A DNA stretch of 59,477 bases, from positions 1 through 59,477 of the forward strand of contig JACPYM010000084.1 in the NCBI GenBank assembly GCA_016196035.1. Reading direction: 5' to 3'. The notes below the pieces were generated by a model. That model was not told where the DNA came from, did not search any database, and saw nothing but the letters and a program-made list of their open reading frames with translations. Origin of the DNA: Acidobacteriota bacterium (lineage in GTDB: Bacteria; Acidobacteriota; Blastocatellia; RBC074). A program made the position numbers and the translations under genes. This document shows positions 43,974-48,283 of this stretch, in pieces (position 1 is the first letter of the stretch; each line of letters opens with the position of its first letter).

Positions 43974-46829
43974 ATGGCCGACCAATTCAACTACGACGTT
44001 TTCCTGAGCCACAGTTCAAAAGACAAACCCCTCGTGCGCCCCCTCGCCGAACGCTTGCGGGCGGACGGGCTGCGCGTGTGGTTCGATGAGAGGGACATCA
44101 ATCCCGGCAGCCATTGGCAGTCGAAAATTGAAGAAGGGCTGGAGCAGTCGCGCGTGCTGGTGGTGTGCGTGTCGGAGAACGGGAGCACCTCTGACTGGGT
44201 GAAGTTAGAGGTCGGCACGTTTCGACGTCGTGACCCGCTGAACAGGGAGGGCCGAATAATCCTCTTGCGGCTCGATGAAGCCGAAATCAAAGGCTTGCTG
44301 GGAGAGTACCATTACATCAACTGGCTGCCGGAAGAGCAGGATTATACGAAGCTGCTCGAAGCTTTGACTGGCGCGGGCAATAAATCCGCAGGCAATTCCG
44401 TTAGCGAGCCGCTGAGCGTGCAGCGCAAATCTGAACTGGCTTACCTCGCTTGGCTGAAAGAGGAACAGTTGATTTACATGGATAGATACACGCCAGTCAG
44501 CGGCGGCACGCAGCAACAGCGGCGCGCTCGGGCGCGCGTTCCCGGCAGCACGGTGCCGTTTGACAAGGAACAGCAAACGCGCCCGTTTGCAGACGCAGTC
44601 GAAGAAATTCAAGGTCTGCAAAACAACTCTGGCCGAGCCGTACTGCTGGGTGATCCAGGTGGCGGCAAGACGTTCATCCTCTGGAAGCTCGCGGAGCGTT
44701 TGGTCGAAGCTGCGCGCAATGACTCGGCGGCGCCGATCCCGCTGCTGATCCGGCTGGGCTTCTGGACAAAGGCTGACCAGCGCTTGCCCGAATTCATGGC
44801 CGCGCAATTAAAAGGTCTGGGCCCGCATCTCAAGACGTTGCTGGAGCAAAAACGCGCGGCGCTTTTGCTGGATGGACTGAACGAAGTGCCCAGCGCCCAA
44901 CGCTCCGGCAAGGCCAATCTGATTAAGCAATTTATCGAAGACCACGAATCGTTGCTCGCCGTTGTCTCCTGCCGCAAAGAGGATTATGCGCCGCATACAG
45001 AATTCGAGTTGGGATTTGATCGCCTCAATATCCTTCCGCTCGATGCGCTGCGGATTCGTGAATTCATCGAGCGTTACTTGAAAGAGAAAGCCGAGAGGTT
45101 CTTCTGGAAGCTGGCCGGTCAAGACACGCGCACTTACCACGACGATTTCGTCGCCAAGGTCGGCGTTGAGCACGAAGAGATTTTCTGGCTCAAAGATCAA
45201 CTGCCGGATGATTTGAAATGGACGTATGACTGGGACAACAACAATGAATACAGCCGCTGGCAAGACTGGCACGGACACCGCGTGCGACACTGCGAACAGG
45301 CCGACAGCCTGCTGGTGTTAGCGCGTAATCCCTATATGCTCTGCATGCTGGTCAGCGTCTCTGATGAAAAGGGCGACTTGCCGCAGAACCGGGGTGAAGT
45401 CTTCCGCAAGTTCGTCGAGGAGTTGTTGGACCGCGAAGAAGTGTCTGCCAGTGCGCGTGAGCCGCTGCGCGCGGGGCTGATGCAAGTCGCCTACAAGATG
45501 CAAAGCCAACGCGCGCTCAGCGGCGCGGATGGCGATACTGACAAAAGCAATGCGGCGACCGTGCTCTCAAATGAAGACGTCCGCAAAATCCTGGACGAAC
45601 AATCGCTCAAACTGGCGGGCAGCGCCAGCTTGCTCAGCCTGGGCGATGAAGTACGTTTCACCCATCAACTGTTGCAGGAGTATTTCGCCGCGCAGCATCT
45701 GAAAACCATTCGAGCGGCGGGCCAGCGCGCGACCGAACTCTGGCCCCGTGAGCGTTGGTGGAAACGCACCAATTGGGAAGAAACCGCCGTGCTGCTGGCT
45801 GGGCTTGACAGCGATGATTGCTCTGAGGTCGTCGAATGGATCGCCGCCGCCAACCCGGAAGTCGCCGCGCAATGCATCGTGCGTAGCGGCGCGCAGACGC
45901 CTGAAGCCACGCGCGCCCGGTTGCGTGACGAATGGCTGAAACGGCTGGACAAGCCTGAACTCGAACCTGAACCGCAAGCCCGCGCCGCCATTGGGCGCGC
46001 CTTGGGGCAAATAGTCGGCTTGGACAATCGTCCGGGCGTGGGCCTAAACAGCGACCACTGGCCCGACATTACCTGGATCAAGATTCCCGGTGGCGAGTTT
46101 CAATACGGCGCGGAAAAGCAAGCTGGCGATCCCGACTGGTACGAGCCTGCCAAGCCGCGACCGCTGAAGCTGGCTACGTTTTGGATTAGCCGCTATCCGA
46201 TCACTTATGCGCAGTTCCGCTGCTTTGCCGAAGACAATGGCTACGGCGATGAGCGTTGGTGGGATGGGTTAGCGGCGGATGATGATGACCGCACGCCCGC
46301 TGAGCAGTCCTTCAAATTCGACAATCATCCGCGCGACACGGTGAATTGGTATGAAGCCATCGCCTTTTGCCGCTGGCTGTCGTGGCGCAAGGGTGGTGGC
46401 TATGACTTGCAACAGATTGACGAATGGAAAGTGCGCTTGCCGACTGAGTTTGAATGGGAGAAGGCGGCACGCGGCACCGATGGCAGGCTTTATCCATACG
46501 GCAATGATTTCGATGCGTCGAAAGGCAACGTTGATAAAACTGGTATCGGCCAGACCAGCGCGGTGGGCATCTTCCCCGACGGCATGTCGTTTTATGAAGT
46601 GGAAGAAATGAGCGGCAATGTGTGGGAGTGGTGTTTGAGCGATTACAACAAGCCGCAGAGAGATGCGCGGAAAGAAAAACTGGATACGGACAACACTCGT
46701 GTCCTGCGGGGCGGCTCGTGGTTCTTCAATGTTGACAACGCGCGCTCTGTGTACCGCTACTTCTCTCAGCCCGGCGGCCGCAACGGCGATCCCGGTTTTC
46801 GGGTCGTGGTAGTGCGTCCCCCTTCTTAG
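43974..46829 (+). CDS. TIR-NACHT-FGE protein (conflict-system type), C-terminal variable-region-like segment
   Basis: A 951-residue protein. TIR domain about residues 5-130 (YDVFLSHSSKDKPLVRPLAE, then IEEGLEQSR with a candidate catalytic Glu). NACHT NTPase with Walker A GDPGGGKT (G226-T233) and Walker B LLLDGLNE (D300). A helical region with little similarity runs to about 690. A formylglycine-generating-enzyme/sulfatase-modifying fold spans 700-951 (IPGGEFQYGA, GNVWEWC, LRGGSW). The end, residues 911-950, is the part that varies in C-type-lectin-fold proteins. TIR domains in such proteins usually destroy NAD or make signals. ATG 43974 was chosen; a longer frame from 43839 has no support. Confidence 0.92.
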   Translation: MADQFNYDVFLSHSSKDKPLVRPLAERLRADGLRVWFDERDINPGSHWQSKIEEGLEQSRVLVVCVSENGSTSDWVKLEVGTFRRRDPLNREGRIILLRLDEAEIKGLLGEYHYINWLPEEQDYTKLLEALTGAGNKSAGNSVSEPLSVQRKSELAYLAWLKEEQLIYMDRYTPVSGGTQQQRRARARVPGSTVPFDKEQQTRPFADAVEEIQGLQNNSGRAVLLGDPGGGKTFILWKLAERLVEAARNDSAAPIPLLIRLGFWTKADQRLPEFMAAQLKGLGPHLKTLLEQKRAALLLDGLNEVPSAQRSGKANLIKQFIEDHESLLAVVSCRKEDYAPHTEFELGFDRLNILPLDALRIREFIERYLKEKAERFFWKLAGQDTRTYHDDFVAKVGVEHEEIFWLKDQLPDDLKWTYDWDNNNEYSRWQDWHGHRVRHCEQADSLLVLARNPYMLCMLVSVSDEKGDLPQNRGEVFRKFVEELLDREEVSASAREPLRAGLMQVAYKMQSQRALSGADGDTDKSNAATVLSNEDVRKILDEQSLKLAGSASLLSLGDEVRFTHQLLQEYFAAQHLKTIRAAGQRATELWPRERWWKRTNWEETAVLLAGLDSDDCSEVVEWIAAANPEVAAQCIVRSGAQTPEATRARLRDEWLKRLDKPELEPEPQARAAIGRALGQIVGLDNRPGVGLNSDHWPDITWIKIPGGEFQYGAEKQAGDPDWYEPAKPRPLKLATFWISRYPITYAQFRCFAEDNGYGDERWWDGLAADDDDRTPAEQSFKFDNHPRDTVNWYEAIAFCRWLSWRKGGGYDLQQIDEWKVRLPTEFEWEKAARGTDGRLYPYGNDFDASKGNVDKTGIGQTSAVGIFPDGMSFYEVEEMSGNVWEWCLSDYNKPQRDARKEKLDTDNTRVLRGGSWFFNVDNARSVYRYFSQPGGRNGDPGFRVVVVRPPS
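46703..46823 (+). other. Variable-region-like segment at the end of the TIR-NACHT-FGE gene
   Basis: Encodes LRGGSW followed by variable-looking positions F, F, N, V then DNARSV, Y, R, Y, F, S, then GFRVVVVRPP. The layout fits FGE-fold variable regions of diversity-generating retroelements. It aligns to 47409-47505 with a 24-base gap. Confidence 0.55.
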
Positions 46830-46913
46830 TTCTACTCTGAACACTGTTCCTGGGGCGGTGCGCGAAGCGCAGGTGCGTATGCACCAGCCCCCTGCGCCGC
46901 TTTGGGCGCAGGC

Positions 46914-47109
46914 AAAAATTTTCTTCCTGTAAATAATCTGGGGCTGCGGGGTGTGTGGCGGCGGGTGTTCAGAGTTCGAGCTTTAGCTTGTTCGCGCCGC
47001 GTTCGGTGCGTCGGCGGCGCGAACAAGCTAAAGCTCGAACTCTGAACACCCGCTTTCGCAGGTGTCTGCGCCAACCGAACACTGAAAAATTTACAGGAAG
47101 AATTTTTTT
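46914..47109. repeat. Nested inverted repeats downstream of the TIR-NACHT-FGE gene
   Basis: Outer arms AAAAATTTTCTTCCTGTAAAT (46914-46934) and ATTTACAGGAAGAATTTTTTT (47089-47109) enclose a GTTCAGAGTTC-family element (46971-47052: GTGTTCAGAGTTCGAGCTTT facing AAAGCTCGAACTCTGAACAC). Just upstream, CTGCGCC-GCTTTG-GGCGCAG (46892-46911) is a perfect small hairpin. Confidence 0.82.
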
Positions 47110-47149
47110 CGGCAATTCGAGAGCACTGCAATAGAGCGGGCTAGTGAGG

Positions 47150-47346
47150 CAGTACCGCGCGCGCGAGCAAGCGGGTGCTGGAACGCTAGTACTCCATCAA
47201 GCTGTAAGTGATGGATGCTGAGAGCGCATCCGGGATGTAGGGCGGGATTAAATCCCGCCCTACATCCCTCATTTTCAGCTTGATGGAGTACTAGCACAAT
47301 GCGCCAAACCTGTAGGTGCCGCTTGCTCACGCGCGCGGTACTGTCC
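47150..47346. repeat. GTACCGCGCGC-family inverted repeat with another element nested inside
   Basis: Outer arms GCAGTACCGCGCGCGCGAGC (about 47149) and GCTCACGCGCGCGGTACTGTC (to 47346). Inside lies a second element 47185-47295 with arms GCTAGTACTCCATCAAGCTG and CAGCTTGATGGAGTACTAGC around GATGTAGGGCGGGATT / AATCCCGCCCTACATC. The inner element has interrupted the outer loop. Confidence 0.82.
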
Positions 47347-47408
47347 TGCGGCGTGCCGCACTGTTATGATGCCCGCGCAACGCAAGTTATGGGGTTCGCT
47401 GTGACGCA

Positions 47409-47505
47409 CCTGCGGGGCGGCGCGTGGTTCAACAACAATGACAACGCGCGTGCCGTCAATCGTAACAACAATACCGGTTTTCGGCTGGTGGTGGCGCGTC
47501 CCCCT
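47409..47505 (+). other. Template-repeat-like, adenine-rich copy of the FGE C-terminal segment
   Basis: 97 bases that translate as LRGGAWFNNNDNARAVNRNNN then TGFRLVVARPP. It is not part of an FGE gene: no FGE-fold reading frame leads into it, and upstream is a repeat element. Seven AAC/AAT codons stand where the gene at 43974 has F, N, V, Y, Y, F and S. In my hand alignment 11 of 18 template adenines are changed against 12 of 79 other bases. This matches the template side of a diversity-generating retroelement, but it is 24 bases shorter than the gene segment. No reverse transcriptase gene is in the window. Confidence 0.55.
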
Positions 47506-47880
47506 CCTTTCGTCCCTCTTCAAAGGCCTGAGGCACGGGCTTCAGCGCGAGCCGTCCCCCTTTTATCAGGGTGCGGCGGCTTCCGGAATTGCTGGCCGAG
47601 TACGCTTTGCCAGCCGAGGCGAAGAACTGAAAGAAGGCGCAGCCGAATCCCGTCCGCACGGGCGCAAAACACCGTCGGGCGCATACAAAAGCATAGGCCG
47701 GACACGCGTGCTCGCATGCCTGTCCGGCTTATGTCGTCTTTAGCCAGCCAGCCAATTGGCCACAACAGGCCGCGTGCGTGCGCGGCGCAACCGGTCAAAC
47801 AGATTGTGTTTTCAGGCGAGCAGTTTGATGTGATGAGTGTGCGGCGATGGCGGGCTGCGGCGTTGCGGTAAGAGTAGTTT
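47506..47880. other. Non-coding stretch following the template-like segment
   Basis: I see no supported gene. It contains a perfect eight-base-pair stem GCCGGACA..TGTCCGGC around 47696-47728 and frames that only echo low-complexity Arg/Gly-rich text. If the template hypothesis is right this could be the transcribed spacer that normally precedes the reverse transcriptase, but that gene is absent. Confidence 0.3.
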
Positions 47881-47881
47881 C

Positions 47882-48004
47882 CCTGGGTACGCACGGCTTC
47901 CAGCGTGCAGACTTGGCGTCGGACGCGATAGCGCCGAAGGGGAATCCTTTGGCATCAATTCGTCCCGCGCCGAGACTGCACGCTGGAAGCGATGCGTACC
48001 CAGG
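47882..48004. repeat. Inverted repeat with CCTGGGTACGCACGGCTTCC arms
   Basis: CCTGGGTACGCACGGCTTCC with a CAGCGTGCAG continuation (from 47883) faces CTGCACGCTGGAAGCGATGCG and GTACCCAGG (to 48004). It ends just before the stop codon of the sulfur carrier gene at 48008. Confidence 0.8.
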
Positions 48005-48007
48005 CTT

Positions 48008-48283
48008 TCAGCCGCCCGCAATCGCAGGCACGATGGAAATTTCGGCACGTGCGCCAACTGGCGTTTGCAGCCGCTCCAGAAAGCGGATGTCTTCGCCGTC
48101 TACATAAACGTTGATGAAGCGGCGCAACTCGCCGGTATCGTCGCAGAGGCGCGCTTGGATGCCGGGGAAGCGGGTTTCCAGTTGTTGGAAGACGTCGCCG
48201 ACGGTGGCGCCTTCGACTTCGACCAGTTCGGTGTCGTTGGTGAATTTGCGGAGCGGGGTTGGAATGATGACGGTTTGGGCCAT
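48008..48283 (-). CDS. MoaD/ThiS-type ubiquitin-like sulfur carrier
   Basis: A 91-residue beta-grasp protein ending in the essential Gly-Gly (IVPAIAGG). The body reads [20 protein letters not shown] and [16 protein letters not shown]. These are the marks of CysO/MoaD/ThiS carriers, whose terminal glycine is adenylated and thiocarboxylated to deliver sulfur for cysteine or cofactors. Start at ATG 48283 with GAGGAAA upstream; the longer frame is unsupported. It resembles the carrier domain of the fusion at 52421, so the cell has two related carriers. It lies downstream of threonine synthase, a repeat element between them. Confidence 0.88.

What the first reader, a model, noticed from the sequence alone, without database searches (positions are those of the whole stretch)
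46703..47505. A VR/TR-like pair next to a TIR-NACHT-FGE gene suggests a diversity-generating retroelement with its reverse transcriptase missing
Seen directly: 580 bases after the gene, a 97-base adenine-rich copy of the FGE C-terminal segment stands alone. Its seven Asn codons align with F, N, V, Y, Y, F, S in the gene, changes reachable from AAY by adenine mutation. In my hand alignment 11 of 18 copy adenines differ against 12 of 79 other bases. Known: DGRs diversify FGE/C-type-lectin folds using AAY-rich templates. Against it: 12 non-adenine differences and a 24-base length gap mean this copy cannot be the direct, current template. The gene's own end follows the usual 17-residue NRNNN..NR..GFR spacing, so the copy may have lost 24 bases by AAC-repeat slippage. 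No RT or Avd gene is present in the window.
Basis: partly seen in the sequence, partly recalled or inferred. Interest (0 to 1): 0.92.

Follow-up and report, generated by a model that had tools for sequence, protein, structure and literature searches.

The report
Immune-like gene rewritten by distant retroelement
The tail of a bacterial immune-receptor-like gene carries the adenine-only mutation signature of a diversity-generating retroelement whose template and reverse transcriptase lie on another contig, and the nearby look-alike copy appears to be a worn-out, unused template.

Summary
The window gene 43974-46829 (TIR-NACHT-FGE) ends in a variable repeat at 46703-46820. A complete DGR lies on contig C33 of the same genome: RT, Avd, TR and two target genes. 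Its TR matches the window's repeat over 118 bp with 14 of 26 template adenines changed and 0 of 92 other bases. Three more TIR-NACHT-FGE genes show the same pattern; pooled over the four, 61 of 104 adenines and 0 of 368 other bases differ. Just upstream of the repeat these genes are only 41-78% identical, so the C33 template has overwritten all four. The local copy at 47407-47502 is an orphan TR: it matches TR-plus-spacer DNA of other DGR loci over about 320 bp, has lost 24 bp between 11-bp direct repeats (C34 keeps a fuller copy), and no repeat templated by it was found. C33 (complete), C34 (VR, TR, Avd, no RT found) and the window (VR, damaged TR) look like a decay series. RT-less loci diversified in trans were already described in Thiohalocapsa, so this is a new member of a known kind. 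Present activity was not testable.

The parts
43974..46829 (+). Target gene: TIR-NACHT-FGE protein, 951 aa, open frame intact
   Evidence: Pfam TIR_2 aa 9-127, NACHT aa 223-371, FGE-sulfatase aa 701-945
46074..46808 (+). FGE (C-type-lectin-like) domain that carries the variable repeat
   Evidence: PF03781 E 1.2e-45; sequence match to Treponema denticola variable protein 2y3c E 1.2e-10
46703..46820 (+). Variable repeat (VR), 118 bp
   Evidence: Against the C33 TR: 14 of 26 template A and 0 of 92 other bases differ
46794..46829 (+). Unchanged 3' end of the VR and stop codon (IMH-like); after CGTCCC it departs from the TR (CCTTCTTAG against ACTCCTTTC)
   Evidence: alignment of TR and VRs; the name IMH-like is by analogy
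46852..46911 (+). Two G+C-rich stem-loops just downstream of the VR
   Evidence: DNA fold of 46824-46925, z -3.3, 0 of 200 shuffles as stable
46961..47053 (.). Long imperfect palindrome (MITE-like)
   Evidence: self match on the opposite strand, 90%
47186..47294 (.). 109-bp palindromic MITE-like element in high copy number, between VR and orphan TR
   Evidence: 39 further copies at 98-100% listed; 40 of 504 candidate places were scored
47367..47687 (+). Orphan TR plus spacer: the stretch homologous to TR-spacer DNA of other DGR loci
   Evidence: 82% to C34, 75% to the C33 TR region, 76% to G007:C102, 75% to G009:C12 (alignment)
47407..47502 (+). Orphan template repeat core, 96 bp, with a 24-bp internal deletion
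47461..47471 (+). Surviving copy of the 11-bp direct repeat (CGTAACAACAA) at which 24 bp were lost
   Evidence: the C34 copy has two such repeats 24 bp apart

Best explanation
The 3' end of the TIR-NACHT-FGE gene is the variable repeat of a diversity-generating retroelement that works in trans. On contig C33 a complete DGR (TR, Avd, RT) makes an adenine-mutagenised cDNA of its TR, and this cDNA replaces the matching repeat in four TIR-NACHT-FGE genes: two beside the RT, one on C34 and the window gene on C84. The A-only differences and the uniformity of all other repeat sites are shown by sequence; the cDNA step is inferred from studied DGRs. The adenine-rich copy at 47407-47502 is an orphan TR, inferred to come from an older duplicated DGR cassette that lost its RT and Avd here; the TR itself lost 24 bp, and MITE-like elements lie between it and the gene. 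The varied FGE domain is inferred to be the sensor, NACHT the oligomerising switch and TIR the effector of an anti-phage or conflict protein.
For: C33 TR against four VRs: 14, 14, 15 and 18 of 26 template A differ, 0 of 92 others each time; pooled 61/104 against 0/368, Fisher p 8e-49, and in the 12 held sequences scanned without gaps the next-best place has 22 non-A differences. Non-A VR sites are identical in all 6 gene pairs, while the 90 columns just upstream (69 comparable positions) are 41-78% identical. The C33 RT passes the RVT_1 cut-off and carries IGNLTSQ and YVDD (that IGNLTSQ is DGR-typical is recalled). Avd passes the NCBIfam DGR Avd cut-off, 94.7 against 80 bits. 12 of 17 public relatives of this RT have a TR/VR-like pair in which at least 80% of mismatches are at template A (threshold set in the script). 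The local copy's flanks match TR-spacer DNA of C33, G007 and G009. No repeat was found that matches an orphan TR with A-biased differences. C34 keeps an open Avd frame, but no RT was found there.
Against: No reads, transcripts or second strain were available, so ongoing activity is not shown; only 0/368 non-A differences argue for recency (upper bound about 0.8%). The genome is a 139-contig assembly (97% complete, 0.18% contamination), so co-residence of C33 and C84 rests on binning plus the exact match. No NCBIfam model specific to DGR RTs was hit; the best was the group II intron RT model, below its cut-off (118 against 300 bits). The scan had no shuffled control, and the similar scan also gave one pair (C42 against C7, 66 bp, 8 A and 2 other) that looks like chance or a repeat. 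In the nearest relative, G007, the TR/VR pair is not clean (13/18 A but 3 other over 75 bp). The FGE model was poor over the VR (mean pLDDT 60; residues 186-239 below 50), so placing the varied residues on a binding face is unproven. The region after the C33a VR does not fold better than shuffles (z -1.1).
Confidence: 0.93

Rival explanations
1. The local copy at 47407-47502 is the template that wrote the window VR, and its RT was lost.
For: Adenine bias is visible against this copy too: 9-10 of 18 A against 11-12 of 79 others. The order VR, TR, spacer is that of C33.
Against: 11-12 non-A differences and a 24-bp length difference, where the C33 TR leaves none. The full-length C34 copy fits the window VR no better: 19 of 90 non-A sites differ.
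Confidence: 0.03
2. The orphan TRs on C84 and C34 are live second templates served in trans by the C33 RT and Avd.
For: Their spacer DNA is still 70-79% identical to that of C33, G007 and G009, and the 3' junction is largely kept; C34 keeps an open Avd frame.
Against: No VR was found that matches either at non-A sites; the window copy has a 24-bp deletion that none of the four VRs shares; the VRs next to both carry the C33 TR sequence.
Confidence: 0.06
3. The copy is a broken 3' fragment of a duplicated FGE gene, not a template.
For: It lies in an open frame and resembles the FGE end.
Against: Homology runs about 185 bp further downstream into spacer DNA shared with the TRs of C33, G007 and G009. 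The 40-50 bases upstream are 52-74% identical to TR upstream DNA, which is weak, but no blast hit joins them to FGE coding sequence.
Confidence: 0.02
4. The four VRs are alike through ordinary gene conversion or recent duplication, without mutagenic retrohoming.
For: The genes are paralogues; C84 and C34 are 73% identical over 2387 aligned columns.
Against: Conversion gives no reason for 61 differences to fall only at adenines of the C33 TR; the shared tract stops near the TR boundaries.
Confidence: 0.01

Closest known systems
Thiohalocapsa PB-PSB1 DGR loci (Dore et al. 2024, PMC10907252)
   Same: Several DGR loci per genome; one complete locus per class plus degenerate loci with parts missing; VRs at RT-less loci match the TR of another locus at all non-A sites; MITE-like repeats in the degraded loci; NACHT, TIR and C-type-lectin domains among the targets (abstract, Results parts 1-2 of 3, section 18 and passages read).
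   Different: Here an Acidobacteria-related genome with paralogous TIR-NACHT-FGE targets; the RT-less loci still hold a diverged TR, one with a mapped 24-bp deletion; no population data. Whether Dore's DGR 4 and 5 keep such TRs I did not see.
Remote variable proteins of cyanobacterial and Trichodesmium DGRs (PMC7517822, PMC8867640; passages seen)
   Same: Target genes far from the RT; in the cyanobacterial survey with 3'-terminal VRs in C-type-lectin genes, and TIR-like domains among the less common features.
   Different: The cyanobacterial survey used 50% identity thresholds; here the match is exact at non-A sites. The word orphan does not occur in either text.
Treponema denticola DGR (PMC4891356; passages seen)
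   Same: One TR serves up to seven target genes, some remote; leftover targets of lost DGRs.
   Different: Another lineage and other targets; the passages seen do not mention TIR-NACHT targets.
Bordetella phage BPP-1 DGR (PMC3240598, PMC12875486; passages seen)
   Same: TR, VR, Avd, RT, 3' junction and hairpin after the VR.
   Different: There avd lies 5' of the TR and a spacer separates TR from the RT gene; on C33 avd lies between TR and RT on the opposite strand, and two of four targets are on other contigs.

Membership tests
Diversity-generating retroelement (C33 DGR with window VR as target) | TR/VR pair differing at template adenines only | tested here: met
   14/26 A, 0/92 other for the window VR; 61/104 and 0/368 over four VRs
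Diversity-generating retroelement (C33 DGR with window VR as target) | Reverse transcriptase of DGR type next to the TR | tested here: met
   C33:146416-147495, RVT_1 over cut-off, IGNLTSQ/YVDD in the translation (motif meaning recalled); 12 of 17 close relatives have an A-biased TR/VR-like pair (no shuffled control). No DGR-RT model was hit in NCBIfam, and no tree with reference DGR RTs was built
Diversity-generating retroelement (C33 DGR with window VR as target) | Accessory protein Avd | tested here: met
   C33:147485-147841, NF033474 94.7 bits against cut-off 80, PF22296 67.6 against 40
Diversity-generating retroelement (C33 DGR with window VR as target) | VR in the C-terminal part of a C-type-lectin/FGE domain | tested here: met
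   PF03781 and phmmer match to 2y3c, by sequence; the predicted model was too poor to add to this
Diversity-generating retroelement (C33 DGR with window VR as target) | IMH junction and downstream hairpin at the VR | tested here: inconclusive
   VR and TR diverge after CGTCCC; stem-loops predicted, z -3.3 (C84), -2.9 (C34), -3.9 (C33b), -1.1 (C33a)
Diversity-generating retroelement (C33 DGR with window VR as target) | Variation of the VR within a population or strain set | not testable with these tools
   no reads or second strain of this species at hand
Complete DGR cassette within the window | RT and Avd present beside VR and TR | tested here: not met
   no hit of C33 RT or Avd in the window by tblastn at E up to 10
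Clade 5D DGRs of multicellular bacteria (Dore et al.) | RT placement in clade 5D by phylogeny | not tested
   Two STAND-type targets flank the RT, as described for 5D (passage), but no tree was built with reference sequences

The most novel reading that the evidence does not exclude
The orphan TR-spacer units on C84 and C34 are still transcribed and loaded by the C33 RT-Avd, either as rarely used alternative templates or as decoys that modulate it, so that one RT serves several templates and can switch the sequence backbone of an immune sensor family.
Probability: 0.06. Interest if true: 0.75.

Novelty: new member of a known kind. Interest (0 to 1): 0.56.

Why it matters
One DGR in an Acidobacteria-related genome appears to rewrite the sensor ends of four paralogous TIR-NACHT-FGE genes on three contigs, two of them at loci where no RT was found. 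Zero non-adenine divergence inside the repeat, against 22-59% difference just upstream, is a clear record of concerted evolution by retrohoming. The set of complete, half-decayed and nearly erased cassettes suggests how targets can outlive their local machinery by depending on a template elsewhere. Searches that need the VR beside the RT, as Roux et al. 2021 say of their own (passage seen), would miss the window locus.

Tried and rejected
The local copy as present template: rejected, 11-12 non-A differences, while the C33 TR gives none.

Orphan TRs as templates for any repeat: own-genome DNA searches with the window copy and the C34 copy, and A-biased scans of held regions, showed none. The scans cover the RT regions and FGE loci that I held, not every base; the DNA searches cover the whole assembly at blast sensitivity, with 40 of 46-47 candidate places scored.

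Other FGE genes as targets of the C33 TR: C35, C116 and C64 have 27-32 non-A differences without gaps and C99 differs in length, so they do not look like current targets.

Structure prediction of the FGE domain: mean pLDDT 60, VR region below 50; no fold search was run on it.

PADLOC: the window protein matched only partial models, mostly of TIR proteins; no system was assigned.

Literature: a search for orphan/lacking/template repeat together gave 0 papers; Wu et al. 2018 (PMC5758913) is not held. I make no claim that orphan TRs are unreported. A search for avd on the opposite strand gave 293 papers with at least 3 of 6 terms, 20 listed, one of them on DGRs (PMC12875486); I did not pursue it.
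Full report
Observation. The gene at 43974-46829 encodes a 951-aa protein with TIR (aa 9-127), NACHT (223-371) and FGE-sulfatase (701-945) domains. The adenine-rich copy lies 580 bases downstream, as reported.

The missing RT is in the genome. The window is contig C84 of a 9.59-Mb, 139-contig assembly. RVT_1 gave five matches there, all over the cut-off, on C104, C91, C33, C42 and C37. A DNA search with the copy hit C34 (78%) and C33 (75%), the latter close to the C33 RT. On C33 the order is target gene 1 (minus strand, VR 148492-148609), TR 148082-148201 (minus), Avd 147485-147841 (plus), RT 147495-146416 (minus), target gene 2 (plus, VR 146211-146328). The Avd passes the NCBIfam DGR Avd cut-off; the RT's best NCBIfam match is the group II intron RT model, below its cut-off.

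The true template. The C33 TR and the window VR align without gaps over 118 bp: 14 of 26 template adenines differ and 0 of 92 other bases. The other three: C33b 14/26 and 0/92, C34 15/26 and 0/92, C33a 18/26 and 0/92. Pooled this is 61/104 against 0/368 (Fisher p 8e-49); in the 12 held sequences of this genome scanned without gaps, the next-best place has 22 non-A differences. The changes are 27 A>T, 31 A>G and 3 A>C, summed. The TR can vary 16 codons, cannot produce a stop, and encodes about 2 x 10^14 proteins.

Overwriting. The four target genes are diverged: in the 90 alignment columns before the VR, 69 positions are comparable and 41-78% identical over the six pairs, and the TIR-NACHT parts are 43-66% identical. 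All 92 non-A VR positions are identical in all six pairs. This is expected if one TR keeps rewriting all four, and puts an upper bound of about 0.8% on divergence since (rule of three).

The local copy. The stretch 47367-47687 is homologous to TR plus spacer DNA of C34 (82%), G007:C102 (76%), C33 (75%) and G009:C12 (75%). G007:C102 is identical to JAEUQP010000722.1, titled Acidobacteria bacterium isolate new MAG-254; G007 is in the window genome's family, which is my ground for calling the genome Acidobacteria-related. Over the spacer the identity to C33, G007 and G009 is 74-79% for the window copy and 70-73% for C34; the 40-50 bases upstream of the core are more weakly alike, 52-74%. The copy is therefore best read as an orphan TR with spacer. 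The C34 copy is full length (120 bp) and holds CGTAACAACAA twice, 24 bp apart; removing one unit gives the window's 96 bp with 11 mismatches. C34's copy differs from the C33 TR at 3/26 A and 22/92 other bases (Fisher p 0.28), so it shows no A bias. No place looked like a VR of either orphan.

Decay series. C33 has VR, TR, Avd, RT, VR. C34 has VR gene, full-length orphan TR and an open Avd frame (113 aa, PF22296 60.5 bits against 40), with no RT hit by tblastn in the held 13 kb. The window has VR gene and damaged orphan TR, with no Avd or RT hit. That these are stages of one decay is inference. Between gene and orphan TR lie MITE-like palindromes; one of 109 bp (47186-47294) has 39 further copies at 98-100% identity in a list that scored 40 of 504 candidate places. 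In the related genome G009, contig C12, the RT frame joins about residue 55 to about residue 296, while two VRs still match the local TR with 11/27 and 13/27 A changed and 0 other over 122 bp, junction base included. That looks like an independent loss of RT at such a locus.

Other DGRs here. C104 has a TR that explains a VR in its own FGE gene (13/24 A, 1 other) and one in trans on C7 (8/24 A, 1 other); C91 has its own TR and a kinase-FGE target (8/26 A, 1 other); the single non-A difference lies six bases from the 3' end of each aligned stretch, probably at the junction. In the family, 6 of 11 genomes searched (own included) have an RT match at E 1e-40. In G007 the pair is less clean, 13/18 A and 3 other over 75 bp; in the held stretch of G010 none was found. 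The scan also returned one pair (C42 against C7, 66 bp, 8 A and 2 other) that looks like chance or a repeat. A scan of genome contigs gave 17 loci with a related RT, titled Acidobacteria, Anaerolineae, Poribacteria, Leucothrix, Sphaerotilus, Zoogloea and others; 12 of 17 hold a TR/VR-like pair in which at least 80% of mismatches are at template A, a threshold that I set and for which no shuffled control was run, and 5 of 17 hold none.

Mechanism. Shown: adenine-only differences from a TR on another contig, and uniformity of all other VR sites. Inferred from studied DGRs (passages of PMC3240598 and PMC12875486 seen): the TR RNA with its spacer is copied by RT-Avd with errors at adenines, and the cDNA replaces the VR from the 3' junction. 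Stem-loops are predicted after the VRs (window 46852-46911, z -3.3; C34 -2.9; C33b -3.9; C33a -1.1). Inferred: the FGE domain senses a ligand, NACHT oligomerises, TIR acts as effector. The FGE domain matches the Treponema variable protein 2y3c by sequence. The structure model was too poor over the VR to place the varied residues.

Comparison. Dore et al. 2024 (PMC10907252; abstract, Results parts 1 and 2 of 3, section 18 and passages read) report degenerate loci with missing parts, VRs that match another locus's TR at all non-A sites, MITE-like repeats replacing DGR parts, and NACHT, TIR and lectin domains among the targets. This locus is the same kind in another phylum. What I add is the orphan TR kept beside a VR that another TR has taken over, and the graded set of three loci; I do not claim that orphan TRs are unreported. 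Remote targets are also known in Treponema, cyanobacteria and Trichodesmium (passages).

Limits. No reads or second strain; co-residence of the contigs rests on the assembly; activity today is unproven; clade placement of the RT was not tested. That IGNLTSQ is typical of DGR RTs, and that the top PDB match of the C33 RT (8ub7, E 4e-47, named only Reverse transcriptase there) is a DGR RT, are recalled.

Noticed in passing
L026:9917-11342 (C33), L027:6612-6962 (C34), L128:10399-11120, L094-L110: avd is on the strand opposite to the RT on C33, in G009:C12 and in 16 of 16 public loci with an Avd hit (17 loci, L097 none); in six loci of these genomes with RTs 43-49% identical to C33's (L029, L030, L129, L130, L132, L133) it is co-directional. 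On C34, where no RT was found, avd is opposite to the orphan TR.
   Followed up: partly
window 47186-47294: 109-bp palindromic MITE-like element with at least 39 other near-identical copies in the genome (40 of 504 candidate places scored), suggesting recent spread.
   Followed up: partly
G009:C12 (L128:9738-11500): DGR locus with two A-only VRs, TR and Avd but an RT with its middle deleted.
   Followed up: partly
C104 and C91 (L029, L030), C7 (L134): Two further DGRs in the genome; C104's TR also explains a VR in trans on C7; C91's target is a protein kinase-FGE fusion.
   Followed up: partly
C99:196558-198174 (L028): TIR/SEFIR-FGE gene with a VR-like end related to the C33 family but with length changes and no matching TR found; perhaps a retired target.
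   Followed up: no
window 47883-48008 and repeats on L026, L029, L031, L032, L033: Another dispersed repeat of about 125 bp; full or partial matches at five fetched loci, in both orientations at four of them.
   Followed up: no
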